DNA from: Clostridiaceae bacterium
GTDB lineage: Bacteria > Bacillota > Clostridia > Saccharofermentanales > DTU023
Reading direction: 5' to 3'
NCBI GenBank assembly: GCA_012838135.1
Contig: DUPV01000015.1
Location: forward strand, 1-64,000
DNA length: 64,000 nt
Below the pieces are notes generated by a model. That model did not search any database, was not told where the DNA came from, and worked only from the letters and a program-made list of their open reading frames with translations. Made by a program: the position numbers and the translations under genes. Each line of letters opens with the position of its first letter. Position 1 is the stretch's first letter. Of the stretch, positions 42,114 through 48,613 are shown in pieces.

Positions 42114-43301
42114 CTAAAAATCTGCATTTGGATCGTAGAAATCATCTACATTCTCAATCGTTATAGCAATGGGATCTGTTGTAATTAACGGATCAAATGC
42201 TTCTGGATCAGCACCACCAACTAGGATCTCATCAGCAATATCCCAACCTTTAGCTACCACAAATCGAGGGTGGTTTAAACCTGTAGCTTTGTATTGAGTA
42301 CCTTCTTTAATTAATTCAAGACCTTCTTTCATGCCATCATGGGATGCAAAGAACTGTACTTGATCCAGCAAACCAGCATTTTCAACCGCTTTATAGCCAC
42401 CAATTAACATAGAGTCATTAGGAGCAATCATACAGTTAATGTCTGGATTTGCTGTAACAAGATCTTCTCCAGCTGATAAGCCTCCGTCGGTACTCCAATT
42501 TCCCCAACCTTGTCCCACTAAAACAAAATTAGCATCCGGATATTCCGCTGAACCATTATTTGTTAAGTCATCAGCTAATTGCCATGCAGCTTCAAACGCA
42601 GCATCTTCGCCAATACCTGTCCTTGCATCAATTAATCCAGCAAAAACACCTACTCTACGTTCAAGACCACCTGTATTTCCTTTGTTTCCACTAATCATAG
42701 CTGCTCTTATTTCTTCATCTTCATCGTAGCACGTGCTCATATATTCACCAACTTTATAACCACCAGACAGATTTGGAGCAACTACTAAAGTTACAACCTC
42801 TGCTGTAGCATCGATATTAGAGTCAATAGCTATTACTGGAATACCGGCATCTTTGGCTTCTTTACATTTTTTAGCACCAGCTAAAGGATCGACTGAATTA
42901 ATAAAAATCAAATCGTAATCTTGAGTAATAAAAGTTTCCATATTGGCTTGTTCCGTTTCAATTTGATTTTTTGCATCTAAAATCGTTACGTCCCAACCAC
43001 GTTCATCCGCTTGTTTATGCATTTCTTTTACAAATGATTGTTGGAACGGGTTATCTTGATTTTTGGAAGCATAACCTATTCTAAAAGTCTTTGCTTCATC
43101 TTTATCTGTCTTTGCTTCATCTTTATCTGTCTTTGCTTCATCTTTATCTGTCTTTGCTTCATCTTTATCTGTATCTGCTTCTACCTTTTGCTCTGTTTCT
43201 TCCTTTTTCTCAGGAACAGCAGATTCTTCTGTTTTAGAACCACAAGCTGCTAAACTAAAAATTAAAACAACTACTAATAATAAATTTATAATCTTTTTCA
43301 T
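42114..43301 (-). CDS. RbsB-type sugar ABC transporter substrate-binding lipoprotein
   Basis: Start re-assigned to MKKIINLLLVVVLIFSLAACGSK (lipobox) preceded by AGGAG; ORF track start at 43391 is an extension; periplasmic-binding-like fold. Confidence 0.9.
   Translation of the reverse strand: MKKIINLLLVVVLIFSLAACGSKTEESAVPEKKEETEQKVEADTDKDEAKTDKDEAKTDKDEAKTDKDEAKTFRIGYASKNQDNPFQQSFVKEMHKQADERGWDVTILDAKNQIETEQANMETFITQDYDLIFINSVDPLAGAKKCKEAKDAGIPVIAIDSNIDATAEVVTLVVAPNLSGGYKVGEYMSTCYDEDEEIRAAMISGNKGNTGGLERRVGVFAGLIDARTGIGEDAAFEAAWQLADDLTNNGSAEYPDANFVLVGQGWGNWSTDGGLSAGEDLVTANPDINCMIAPNDSMLIGGYKAVENAGLLDQVQFFASHDGMKEGLELIKEGTQYKATGLNHPRFVVAKGWDIADEILVGGADPEAFDPLITTDPIAITIENVDDFYDPNADF
43089..43172. 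repeat. 21-bp in-frame tandem repeat, 4 units, in rbsB-like gene
   Basis: CTTTGCTTCATCTTTATCTGT x4 (minus strand encodes DKDEAKT). Confidence 0.97.
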
Positions 43302-44264: not shown

Positions 44265-44941
44265 ATTGGAATTACAATAAACTTTTAATCCAATCTGTCC
44301 GTTGACCACGAAATAAAAACAGGTCATCTGTCTTAAGTTCTTTGCCATAGTTTTCTTGGACGATGGCACATAAGCCATCTATCTTTTTACGAAGATCTGT
44401 ATAACCTAAGCCAGATAGATTTTTCCTTTCGCCAGGTGATCTTTTAACATTTCAATGCCTCAATTACAGCTTGGATATTCTCAGGACTGGCTCCGTGCGG
44501 AATCTCCACTTCTAGATCACCAAGCCGGATGTGGATGCTTTCTCCCAAGGAACGGATCAATAGGAGCAGGATCCGGTAAGGCTTTGAACTGAACAATTCT
44601 TTCTGCTTCTGCAGCGAGATGAGCTTTTAGTGTTGGCATCACTTTTTTCTAACGATAGTAATAGGTGAAACGAGTTATTCCGATTTCCTCACACCATTCG
44701 TTTACTGTTAAACCGCTCTGCTTTTGCGATTGAATATCCGAATACCAGCTATTTAATTCGCATTGTTTTTAGCTCAATCAGTTCACTACCCATTTCAATA
44801 CACCTTCAGACTATTCATTTTTACACGTCTTTACACATACAGTTTTGTATAGTCTAACTGAGTTGGTTCCGATGGCTAAACGATGATAGGTTAGACGCTT
44901 GCTGGACTTCGGTGGCCAGACACCGATAGGTTTGACGCTCC
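44265..44941 (-). mobile_element. decayed IS66-type element (left copy: terminal repeats, tnpA remnant, tnpB remnant)
   Basis: Minus strand: MGSELIELK..., LGDLEVEIPHGASPENIQAVIEALKC, KGKIYLA then frameshift YTDLRKKIDGLCAIVQENYGKELKTDDLFLFRGQRTDWIKSLL*; homologous to the 47.4-48.6 kb copy. Confidence 0.85.
44865..44941. repeat. two imperfect 37-bp direct repeats (IS66 terminal iterons)
   Basis: 44865-44901 and 44905-44941 share GATAGGTT(A/T)GACGCT; a third related copy at 47421-47458 in inverted orientation. Confidence 0.8.
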
Positions 44942-44955
44942 ATATACCCCGCACC

Positions 44956-45263
44956 TTGTCAAGAGACAAAAGCAACCCAACCTGAATTTCCCGTCGGAAT
45001 TTTCAGGTTGGGTTTACATCAAACAGCTGTCAACCCCAATCGGAGTGGCCCCGCTAAAGGTTGCCGCGTGGCGGCAGTTTCAGATCCGCAGACACCAGTA
45101 AACTGGCCTGCACTTCGCGTCATTCAGCATGGGATTTTTCGCTTGTAGTTTACTCTACGAGCGGCACGCATCGTTTGTTACGACGTGCAAAGCGTCAGCG
45201 CGAACTTTCCCTACGCTCTCGAACCAAGGTATTCCTGCTGTGATGATCAAAATAGATGAATGC
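44956..45263 (-). ncRNA. candidate bridge RNA/seekRNA region of the IS110/IS1111-type element
   Basis: About 300-nt non-coding, GC-richer segment 3' of the transposase with several hairpins, including an internal loop whose strands match both insertion flanks. Confidence 0.6.
44974..45014 (-). terminator. long hairpin, likely terminator at the 3' end of the ncRNA candidate
   Basis: AACCCAACCTGAA...TTCAGGTTGGGTT, 13-bp perfect outer stem, followed on minus strand by GCTTTTG. Confidence 0.55.
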
Positions 45264-46424
45264 TTACATGGACGAGATTTCCCTGTGAACGATTAAACCA
45301 ATTGCCCACATATCCCGAACCATTTCACTTGCAACCGCCACTTTAGCAACATTAATTTTCTTTCCTTTGGATATTAAGTGTCTAAAACGTTTATAGTGCC
45401 GGATATTACATTTTCGTGCTTCCTCCTCTACTTCGGCAGAAATCTCATGCCCTGAACGCAGGATTTTAGGGATACGATTTTGTTGAGACAAACTGGCAAG
45501 CCCTTCGATGACTGCTTTTCTAACCGTTGTGTCACCTGCCTTTGTAATGTGACCATTCTTTCCTGTTTTTTCTCCACTGTCATTTCGACTTGGTGTTAAC
45601 CCAAAATATCTGGATACACTGTATCCATTTTTAAAACGAGTAAAATCATCCATTGTAGCCACGTAAGCTAATGCCGTAATCTCATCGACTCCTTTTAATC
45701 TGGTCAAGGCATCTACATAGGGCTTAAAACGAGGTAATGAACAAACTTTTATACACTCTTTACTTATATCAGAACATTGCCTCAGTCCTATAAGGACCGT
45801 TTCTAAGTAAAATTGCAATGTTCGTCTTTCTACCGGCTTGGGTAACTCTATAGATTTTACCCAAGAAATGTAATTTTCTGTCCATGTTGCTTTAAGCTTA
45901 CCTGTCTTCGTCCTTTGATCCCAAACATATCCATGTCTGAGAAGCATGGACGAACATTGTAGCTTGCTACGTTTCACAGCATTGACTATATCGTAATAGG
46001 ATCTTACCAGATCTCTGGCAGCTTCAGATTCCTCATCTGGGATCCAAGTAACCCGACACTTTGTTTTTGGATTCAAAACAGCTGCGAGTAGTCGATCTTC
46101 ATCTCTGCGATCATCCTTGTGGATTCTGTCTTCAACACTAACTGGAATGCTGCTAACTGCTATTACATCACAACTATAACCTAAGTTCCTGAGATCTCTT
46201 GCTAACTGAACTACACAAGGACCTGACTCATACACAAAACGCATCGGTTCTGTCAGGCGTGTTGTAGCCCATTTAATCACATCCTCTGCCCTTGGACAAT
46301 CATTAAGGCGAGCATATGCCTCTTTTCCTGTTGTTAGATCCAATGCTGATAACATGATGAATCTTGCATGCTGATCCATAGAAATGACGGATGCAAATTC
46401 AGTCTGAATTGTGTATTCTTTCAT
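45264..46424 (-). CDS. IS110-family transposase (DEDD RuvC-like plus Tnp_20 Ser domain)
   Basis: SMDQHARFIM, YESGPCVVQLARDL, HKDDRRDEDRLLAAVL; C-terminal LKGVDEITALAYVATMDDFTRFKNGYSVSRYFGLTPSRNDSGEKTGKNGHITKAGDTTVRKAVIEG. Confidence 0.95.
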   Translation of the reverse strand: MKEYTIQTEFASVISMDQHARFIMLSALDLTTGKEAYARLNDCPRAEDVIKWATTRLTEPMRFVYESGPCVVQLARDLRNLGYSCDVIAVSSIPVSVEDRIHKDDRRDEDRLLAAVLNPKTKCRVTWIPDEESEAARDLVRSYYDIVNAVKRSKLQCSSMLLRHGYVWDQRTKTGKLKATWTENYISWVKSIELPKPVERRTLQFYLETVLIGLRQCSDISKECIKVCSLPRFKPYVDALTRLKGVDEITALAYVATMDDFTRFKNGYSVSRYFGLTPSRNDSGEKTGKNGHITKAGDTTVRKAVIEGLASLSQQNRIPKILRSGHEISAEVEEEARKCNIRHYKRFRHLISKGKKINVAKVAVASEMVRDMWAIGLIVHREISSM

Positions 46425-46849
46425 TGAAGCCCCCTTCCTGTTTGCGGCAGCTGAGTCCGCTTGGAATTATTTTCACATCAAGCGTATCGCCGCTGGCCCG
46501 CGTGTCAACAGGCTGGGCTTTTTATTTGCTTCGGTGCGGGGTATATCGTCTACAGGCGAACTGAAAATTATGGCTGGCCATAAAATTTATTAAGTAATAA
46601 AAAATTAAATAAGCTTTATTTGTCGTGCTCATTTTTTAAAGATTACAGATTTGCACAGAATATTTATTACTATTAAAATAAAAACACTTAAAAGCAAGAA
46701 ATCTAATCTTCCTTACAAATGAATAGATAATAGCTAATGATAGAAAACTTGAATTTACAGAAATTTTTCGACACAGCCGTCCAAGAAAATGTTCGTCACC
46801 CAGCCTCTAAACTTTACTTTCTTGCTTTTGCGTAACAAGCAGTCAATGA

Positions 46850-47420: not shown

Positions 47421-48610
47421 GTGAGCGTAAAATCTATAGTCGTCTAGCCACCGAAACTCAACCCTGTTAGACTATCCAAAACTGGATGTCTTAAGACATA
47501 TAAAAATGAATAGTCCAGAGGTATCTTAAAATGGGTAGTAAACTTGTAGAGCTAAAAAACAATGCCAAATTAAACAATTGGTATATGGATATCCAATCAC
47601 AAAAACAGAGCGGTTTAACCGTAGACGAGTGGTGTGAGGGAGCCCGGAATGACTCGTTCCGCCTATTACTAGCGTTACAAAATAGTGATGAAAGCATTAG
47701 AAACTCGTCTCGCTGCTGAAGCAGGAAAAACAGTTCAGTTCGAAGCTTTACCGTCTCCAGCTCCTGTTAATGAATCTAAGGAAAAAAGCATCCGTATCCG
47801 GCTCGGTAATCTGGAAGTAGAGATACCACCCGGAGCTAGTCCTGAGAACATTCAAGCTATAATCGAGGCATTGAAATGTTAAAAAATTACCGAGCAGAAG
47901 GGAAAACCTATCTGGCTTTGGGTTATACTGATCTTCTAAGCATCAATAATCTTTTTGACGAGGCAGAAATTTTCAGTGATCCTGAGCAAGAAGAACCTAA
48001 ATTTGAAGAAGTAATCCGGGTTCCGGCTCATACCCGTAAGAAGAAATCTGTCATAGAACGTCTTCCTGAAGATATCCCTATCGTTGAACGTCACCACTAT
48101 GTAGATGGAGAGGGACGTACCTGTCCTCATTGCTCTGCAGAGATCGAAGAAATAGGTACAGAAACAAGAAGTACTCTGGACCTGGCACCTGCTAAAGTAT
48201 TTGAGATCCGCGATATTTGTCATGTTTATGCTTGTAAAGCTTGTGACAAAGAAGCAGAACCGGTGACGGTTCGTAAAGCAACCTTCCCGGCTGCTGTTAT
48301 CCCCGGTGGCATAGCCAGCCCTGAAGCAATTGCCAATGTGATCAATGACAAATTTGTTCAGGGAACACCACTCTATCGCCAGGAACAGTATTGGCAACGA
48401 GTAGGTGTAATGCTCTCCAAACAGACGATGTTAAACTGGCTGATGTACTCGGTAGAACAATACTTGAAATATATTTACGATAAACTTCATCAAGATCTAC
48501 TTCAAGAAGATATCCTGCATGCTGATGAAACAGAATTACAGATTCTGCATGAAGAAGGAAAAAGTCCACAAAAATTTATAAAAAAAGAAAATCTTAAACC
48601 ATTTTTTATC
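47421..48610 (+). mobile_element. decayed IS66-type element (right copy: split tnpA, tnpB/tnpC deletion fusion)
   Basis: MGSKLVELKNNAKLNNWYMDIQSQKQSGLTVDEWCE; LGNLEVEIPPGASPENIQAIIEALKC; 245-aa ORF beginning like TnpB and continuing as TnpC; homologous 5' end to the left copy. Confidence 0.85.
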
Positions 48611-48613
48611 TAA
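47876..48613 (+). pseudogene. chimeric, truncated IS66 TnpB-TnpC remnant
   Basis: MLKNYRAEGKTYLALGYTDL (TnpB-like) then LPEDIPIVERHHY...CPHCSAEIEEIG...HADETELQIL (IS66 transposase zinc finger and first catalytic Asp); downstream catalytic half absent. Confidence 0.85.

What the first reader, a model, noticed from the sequence alone, without database searches (positions are those of the whole stretch)
45131..45211. Candidate target-binding loop: both loop strands match the two insertion flanks
Seen: outer stem GGGA-ttt-TTCGC (45131-45142) pairs with GCGAA-ctt-TCCC (45200-45211). An inner hairpin GCACG(CA)TCGT-ttgtt-ACGACGTGC occupies 45164-45188. The left loop strand contains TCTACGAGCG (45154-45163), directly abutting the inner stem. 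It matches the right insertion flank TCTACAGGCG (46549-46558) at 8/10. The right loop strand contains AGCGTCA (45191-45197), the exact reverse complement of TGACGCT (44933-44939) in the left flank. Both flank matches sit 2 nt outside their IR, so one guide is sense and the other antisense. Established: bridge RNA target loops use two short guides, one per target strand. The matches are short and individually weak; their joint placement is what is notable.
Basis: partly seen in the sequence, partly recalled or inferred. Interest (0 to 1): 0.85.

Follow-up and report, generated by a model that had tools for sequence, protein, structure and literature searches.

The report
RNA guide loop of an IS1111-type transposon
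A jumping gene carries a small RNA whose internal loop pairs with both sides of the DNA site it jumped into, here the end of another transposon (an IS66 element); this is a new, distant member of the recently discovered bridge-RNA / seekRNA systems.

Summary
The finding holds. Window 44940-46551 is an intact-looking IS110/IS1111-type element: a 386-aa DEDD transposase on the minus strand, perfect 14-bp sub-terminal inverted repeats, and a non-coding region downstream of the gene. The loop, both guides and all coordinates are as described. The chance explanation was tested. With the guides fixed, none of 124,550 other sites in the window scores as high. With free placement in the RNA, 3 of 3000 random sites do.

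Eleven relatives were compared (Clostridia from the same order, E. coli ISSso6, Burkholderiaceae). They share the layout, and a dinucleotide core AG/CT present at both junctions, confirmed by an empty ISSso6 site. Across them the 5' loop strand is complementary to each element's own right flank and the 3' strand matches its own left flank (permutation p < 1e-5; 2e-5 for the weaker guide without the window). Consensus folding of nine relatives gives the same stem, internal loop and hairpin, with compensatory changes.

Corrections: the guides are UGACG-CU and CGCUCGU-AG, sharing the core. The free-energy optimum of the naked RNA closes the loop differently. The left flank is an IS66-family transposon end, which several ISSso6 copies also hit. 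Donor guides were not found. This is a new, diverged member of a known kind.

The parts
44940..46551 (-). IS110/IS1111-type element, counted with one copy of the AG core
   Evidence: sTIR plus core position by homology to relatives and the ISSso6 empty site
45264..46424 (-). 386-aa DEDD transposase / recombinase; D17, E66, D105, D108 and the GLTPSRNDSG motif present
   Evidence: NF033542 E 2.3e-42; PF02371 E 1.1e-16; alignment A1
44942..44955 (-). right-end sub-terminal inverted repeat GGTGCGGGGTATAT
   Evidence: sequence
46533..46546 (-). left-end sub-terminal inverted repeat ATATACCCCGCACC
   Evidence: sequence
44938..44939 (-). core dinucleotide AG at the right-end junction (CT on the + strand)
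   Evidence: same position in relatives; empty site in E. coli
46550..46551 (-). core dinucleotide AG at the left-end junction (CT on the + strand)
   Evidence: AG-NNNN-TAT spacing shared with relatives
45131..45211 (-). target-binding loop of the non-coding RNA
45200..45211 (-). 5' arm of the outer stem GGGAaagUUCGC
45131..45142 (-). 3' arm of the outer stem GCGAAaaaUCCC
45191..45197 (-). T guide UGACG-CU (5' loop strand), complementary to core + right target AG-CGTCA, 7/7
45164..45188 (-). inner hairpin between the two guides
45155..45163 (-). B guide CGCUCGU-AG (3' loop strand); matches left target + core CGCCTGT-AG with 7 Watson-Crick, 1 G-U, 1 mismatch
44933..44939 (-). right target half-site plus core, AG-CGTCA; first bases of an IS66-family end
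46550..46558 (-). left target half-site plus core, CGCCTGT-AG
44405..44938 (-). IS66-family element remnant carrying the targeted end (two end-like copies in tandem, 44889-44938)
   Evidence: inverted copy of the IS66 element at 47423-47921, whose neighbouring ORF is PF03050
44968..45014 (-). long hairpin followed by GCTTTT; possible 3' end of the RNA
   Evidence: fold; sequence. Not listed by the terminator scan
44957..44962 (-). TTGACA next to the right end, conserved in relatives; possible -35 box of the circle-junction promoter
   Evidence: sequence; promoter activity inferred only

Best explanation
The loop is the target-binding loop of a bridge RNA / seekRNA made from the region downstream of the transposase gene, on the transposase strand. 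The RNA would bind the 386-aa DEDD recombinase. [quoted passage not shown] Both guides include the core dinucleotide AG/CT, where the strands are exchanged, so the circular element inserts at one point in one orientation. Here that point is the end of an IS66-family transposon. Shown: anatomy, guide-to-flank matching in the window and in relatives, the shared core, and loop covariation in relatives. Inferred: transcription, recombinase binding, circle formation and strand exchange.
For: Transposase family and catalytic residues. sTIR and downstream non-coding region. Relatives with the same LE (AG-NNNN-TAT) and RE (AG) junctions. Uninterrupted nhaA-mokC site GTA-AG-CGCTAACG against the ISSso6 junctions shows the AG core there. 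The ISSso6 T guide CGUUAGCGCUU is an 11/11 complement of that site. Guide/target permutation tests over 12 elements. Window-specific chance tests. Gap between the T and B guides is 27 nt, against mostly 22-28 nt in relatives. RNAalifold of nine relatives recovers the stem, internal loop and hairpin, with 10 of 20 pairs showing compensatory change. Mechanism established experimentally for related elements in PMC11187229 and PMC11208160.
Against: Only one intact copy of this element was found, so its own target consensus is unknown. The B guide has one mismatch and one G-U pair. The naked RNA prefers a fold in which the 3' loop strand pairs with itself. Donor guides could not be found. The rejoined target GT-AG-CGTC lacks one A of the usual IS66 end GTAAGCGTC. 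One relative, L055, fits its B guide but not its T guide. Guide positions in the relatives were read from the alignment by eye, with knowledge of the targets in the unclear cases (L012, L016, L049).
Confidence: 0.9

Rival explanations
1. The T guide is real but the B guide match is chance: the left side is recognised by only two or three bases next to the core, or by another part of the 3' strand such as GAGUAAAC.
For: In relatives the B guide fits only about 3-4 of 5 bases. The ISSso6 B guide is essentially GUA-AG. Bases outside GT in the window's left flank lie outside the IS66 end and would vary between targets.
Against: The B guide sits directly after the inner hairpin, ends in AG at the correct register, and fits its own target better than it fits the targets of the other elements.
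Confidence: 0.25
2. Both matches are coincidences in a structured region that serves the transposase in another way (for example as an mRNA 3' structure or attenuator).
For: Short matches; 3 of 3000 random sites score as well when the guides can sit anywhere.
Against: Fixed-position test 0 of 124,550; same positions act as guides in 11 relatives; covariation of the loop.
Confidence: 0.03
3. The insertion is an IS66-end-specific element that recognises the end through protein-DNA contacts, the RNA being secondary.
For: The target is an IS66-family end, and ISSso6 also sits at IS66 ends in four sampled sites.
Against: The ISSso6 RNA fits its non-IS66 nhaA-mokC site perfectly, and relatives with other guides sit at unrelated sites matching those guides.
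Confidence: 0.04

Closest known systems
IS1111-group insertion sequences with seekRNA (ISEc11, ISPa11, ISKpn4; PMC11187229)
   Same: Sub-terminal inverted repeats, asymmetric extensions (GTAGACG 7 bp left, GGA 3 bp right), non-coding region downstream of tnp, DEDD and GL-P----SG motifs, top-strand complement 5' of the bottom-strand match
   Different: Transposase 386 aa rather than the 330-350 aa reported for the IS1111 family; placement in a tree with reference IS1111/IS110 elements not tested
IS621-type IS110 bridge RNA (PMC11208160, PMC11208158)
   Same: Two guides in one internal loop separated by a hairpin, both containing the core dinucleotide; read on the + strand of the window the core is CT and the guide order is left guide then right guide, as in IS621
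   Different: RNA lies downstream of tnp, longer inverted repeats, donor-binding loop not identified; sequence similarity to the IS621 recombinase only marginal (E 0.03)
ISSso6 (E. coli/Shigella) and Burkholderiaceae relatives
   Same: Same layout, AG core, loop topology; also inserts at IS66-family ends
   Different: Transposase 27% identical; different guides (CGUUAGCG-CU / CGUA-AG)
IS4321/IS5075, which insert in Tn21-family terminal repeats (Partridge and Hall 2003, cited in PMC11187229)
   Same: An IS1111-type element parasitising the terminal repeat of another transposon
   Different: Host transposon family is IS66 here, Tn21 there; this comparison rests on the literature
Decayed relative in a Clostridiales MAG (L004, JAQYCV010000033.1)
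   Same: 61-80% transposase identity in three segments, same left end GTAGACGATATACCCC, same 5' half of the RNA
   Different: Gene broken and right end lost; T guide UGGCG-CU would fit a different right half-site, AG-CGCCA

Membership tests
IS110/IS1111 superfamily | DEDD RuvC-like plus C-terminal Transposase_20 domain | tested here: met
   NF033542 and PF02371 above cut-off; D17, E66, D105, D108 invariant
IS1111 group | sub-terminal inverted repeats of about 11-13 bp with 7/3 bp extensions | tested here: met
   14-bp perfect repeat, GTAGACG and GGA outside it
IS1111 group | long non-coding region downstream of tnp | tested here: met
   44956-45263 between stop codon and right repeat
IS1111 group | GL-P----S(T)G motif | tested here: met
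   GLTPSRNDSG
IS1111 group | top-strand complement precedes bottom-strand match in the RNA | tested here: met
   UGACG-CU 5' of CGCUCGU-AG
IS1111 group | transposase 330-350 aa, clustering with IS1111 references | tested here: inconclusive
   Length 386 aa, outside the reported range; no tree with reference sequences was made
Bridge RNA / seekRNA | internal loop with two guides matching both target halves | tested here: met
Bridge RNA / seekRNA | core dinucleotide shared by target and both junctions | tested here: met
   AG at both junctions here; shown by an empty site for ISSso6, by homology for the window
Bridge RNA (IS621 type) | second, donor-binding loop | tested here: inconclusive
   no significant donor guide in the window; relatives carry TATAAC-AG or TATATC-AG matching their right ends
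Bridge RNA / seekRNA | RNA bound to recombinase and required for transposition | not testable with these tools
   needs experiment

The most novel reading that the evidence does not exclude
A diverged branch of bridge-RNA elements has specialised in parasitising the conserved ends of IS66-family transposons. The window element and ISSso6 (27% identical transposases) would have reached the same niche with different guide sequences, the window RNA having lost the donor guide seen in its relatives.
Probability: 0.25. Interest if true: 0.55.

Novelty: new member of a known kind. Interest (0 to 1): 0.42.

Why it matters
It shows that bridge-RNA target guides can be read from a single genomic insertion and checked against distant relatives. 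It adds a compact, diverged recombinase-RNA pair with a defined core and target, and it adds IS66-family transposon ends to the list of natural targets (no earlier report was found in the papers searched, which is a limited library). If active, it is a further candidate for programmable DNA insertion.

Tried and rejected
Other copies of the element: none intact in its own genome, 198 relatives, 392 genomes of its class, genome contigs (one decayed relative, L004) or viral contigs. Two viral pattern scans gave only unrelated contigs. An uninterrupted copy of the window's own site was not found; G001 (L091) has the homologous right flank, but its IS66 end lies about 50 bp away. An early idea that the left guide was wrong, because GTAGACG is shared with L004, was dropped once the relatives showed AG to be the core. 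The alternative left guide GAGUAAAC was considered and disfavoured on position. An early free-placement cross-matrix had the window's right flank misplaced by two bases; it was replaced. Donor guides in the window: no match above shuffles. ISEc45 (L044), L042 and L046 were inspected and not used for guide tests. L058, an ISSso6 copy from a Shigella plasmid, was fetched and then left out. No structure prediction was run.

Full report
What is there. The element lies on the minus strand. Its 386-aa transposase (45264-46424) matches NCBIfam NF033542, 'IS110 family RNA-guided transposase', and Pfam Transposase_20. The catalytic D17, E66, D105 and D108 and the GLTPSRNDSG motif are present. Perfect 14-bp inverted repeats lie at 44942-44955 and 46533-46546. 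The long non-coding region is downstream of the gene (44956-45263). With 7 bp (GTAGACG) and 3 bp (GGA) outside the repeats, this is the IS1111-group layout described in PMC11187229.

The observation. Every coordinate and match in the finding is correct. On the transposase strand the RNA reads GGGAaagUUCGC - GC-UGACG-CU-UU - hairpin - CGCUCGU-AG-AGUAAACUACAA - GCGAAaaaUCCC. The target, with the element removed, reads CGCCTGT-AG-CGTCAAACC.

Where the element ends. The boundary was settled by relatives. Five Clostridial elements from the same order and several ISSso6-type elements of E. coli and Burkholderiaceae have left junctions of the form LT-AG-NNNN-TAT and right junctions CATAAC-AG-RT or CATATC-AG-RT. 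For one ISSso6 insertion near nhaA the uninterrupted site was found in another E. coli strain. It reads GGCTGTA-AG-CGCTAACGGG, while the junctions read GGCTGTA-AG-GCAGTATGAC and GTCATATC-AG-CGCTAACGGG. So the dinucleotide AG is common to target, left junction and right junction there. In the window AG occurs at the same spacing on the left (46550-46551) and directly before the right target (44938-44939). Read on the + strand this core is CT, the core of IS621 (PMC11208160).

Do the guides track the target? For 12 elements the loop strands were compared with each element's own flanks, leaving out the core. The 5' strand (T guide, 6 nt) scores 59.5 of 72 against a permuted mean of 26.4. The 3' strand (B guide, 5 nt) scores 39.5 of 60 against 22.8. 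No permutation in 100,000 reached either value. Without the window, T is 54.5 against 23.8 (p < 1e-5) and B is 36 against 21.6 (p = 2e-5). Examples of T guides: L007 UGCGGAA-CU 9/9; L008 GACUU-CU 7/7; L011 GCCGG-CU 7/7; L047 GGGUG-CU-U 8/8; ISSso6 CGUUAGCG-CU-U 11/11 at nhaA. Caveats: the permutation ignores relatedness among the ISSso6-type rows, and guide registers in three unclear rows (L012, L016, L049) were read by eye. L055 fits on the B side only.

Is the window match chance? With the two guides fixed, 0 of 124,550 other sites in the window scored as high. With guides free to sit anywhere in the non-coding RNA with a plausible gap, 3 of 3000 random sites did. The T guide (7/7) carries most of the evidence. 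The B guide (7 Watson-Crick, 1 G-U, 1 mismatch over 9) is supported mainly by its position: directly after the inner hairpin, ending in AG, with the spacing seen in relatives (27 nt against mostly 22-28).

Structure. A consensus fold of nine relatives, computed without the window, gives an outer stem, a two-stranded internal loop that holds both guides, and an inner hairpin; 10 of its 20 pairs show compensatory changes. This is the topology proposed in the finding. In the window alone, the isolated 81-nt RNA prefers a fold in which the 3' strand forms its own hairpin (-25.3 against -18.3 kcal/mol), so the loop presumably needs protein or target to open. The whole 314-nt RNA folds better than shuffles (z -3.8).

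What is the target? The right half (44938 downwards) is an IS66-family end. Copies in the same and related genomes read GTAAGCGTCAAACCTATCGG, and a second IS66 copy with an IS66 transposase fragment lies in inverted orientation at 47421-48613. Four ISSso6 insertions (L045, L053, L054, L057) also sit at an IS66-family end, GTA-AG-CGTCAACGG, with one base different in L053. IS4321 and IS5075 are the known precedent for elements aimed at another transposon's terminal repeats (cited in PMC11187229). One detail is open: the rejoined window target is GT-AG-CGTC, one A short of the usual IS66 end, though the B guide CGU-AG fits exactly that. The decayed relative L004 also has GT-AG at its left junction.

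Not resolved. Relatives carry a second guide (TATAAC-AG or TATATC-AG) that matches their own right end and co-varies with it, as expected of a donor-binding loop. No such guide was found in the window RNA above shuffles. Transcription, protein binding and activity cannot be tested here.

Verdict. This is a target-binding loop of a bridge RNA / seekRNA: a new, diverged member of a known kind, with an IS66-family end as target.

Noticed in passing
G000:C70 59179-59260 (L002 1501-1582): A solo remnant 77% identical to the window element's left end, at an unrelated place in the same genome; suggests a former relative.
   Followed up: partly
window 44889-44938: Two IS66-end-like sequences in tandem (about 33 bp, a 7-nt spacer, then a second end) next to the insertion.
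   Followed up: partly
window 47421-48613: A second IS66-family copy in inverted orientation, with a 245-aa transposase fragment matching only the first 87 of 284 positions of PF03050.
   Followed up: no
L007, L008, L011, L012, L016 and the ISSso6-type loci: A conserved RNA segment TATAAC-AG or TATATC-AG matches each element's own right end, including its AAC/ATC variation: a likely donor guide in IS1111-like elements.
   Followed up: partly
L051 (Paraburkholderia aromaticivorans plasmid): Right junction appears to have core AA instead of AG, and the T guide ends in UU instead of CU: a possible natural core change matched by the guide. The left end is missing.
   Followed up: no
window 43066-43211: 21-bp tandem repeats (DKDEAKT) near the start of a substrate-binding lipoprotein gene.
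   Followed up: no
window 44957-44962: TTGACA beside the right end, also present in the relatives; may be the -35 box of a promoter made when the element circularises.
   Followed up: no
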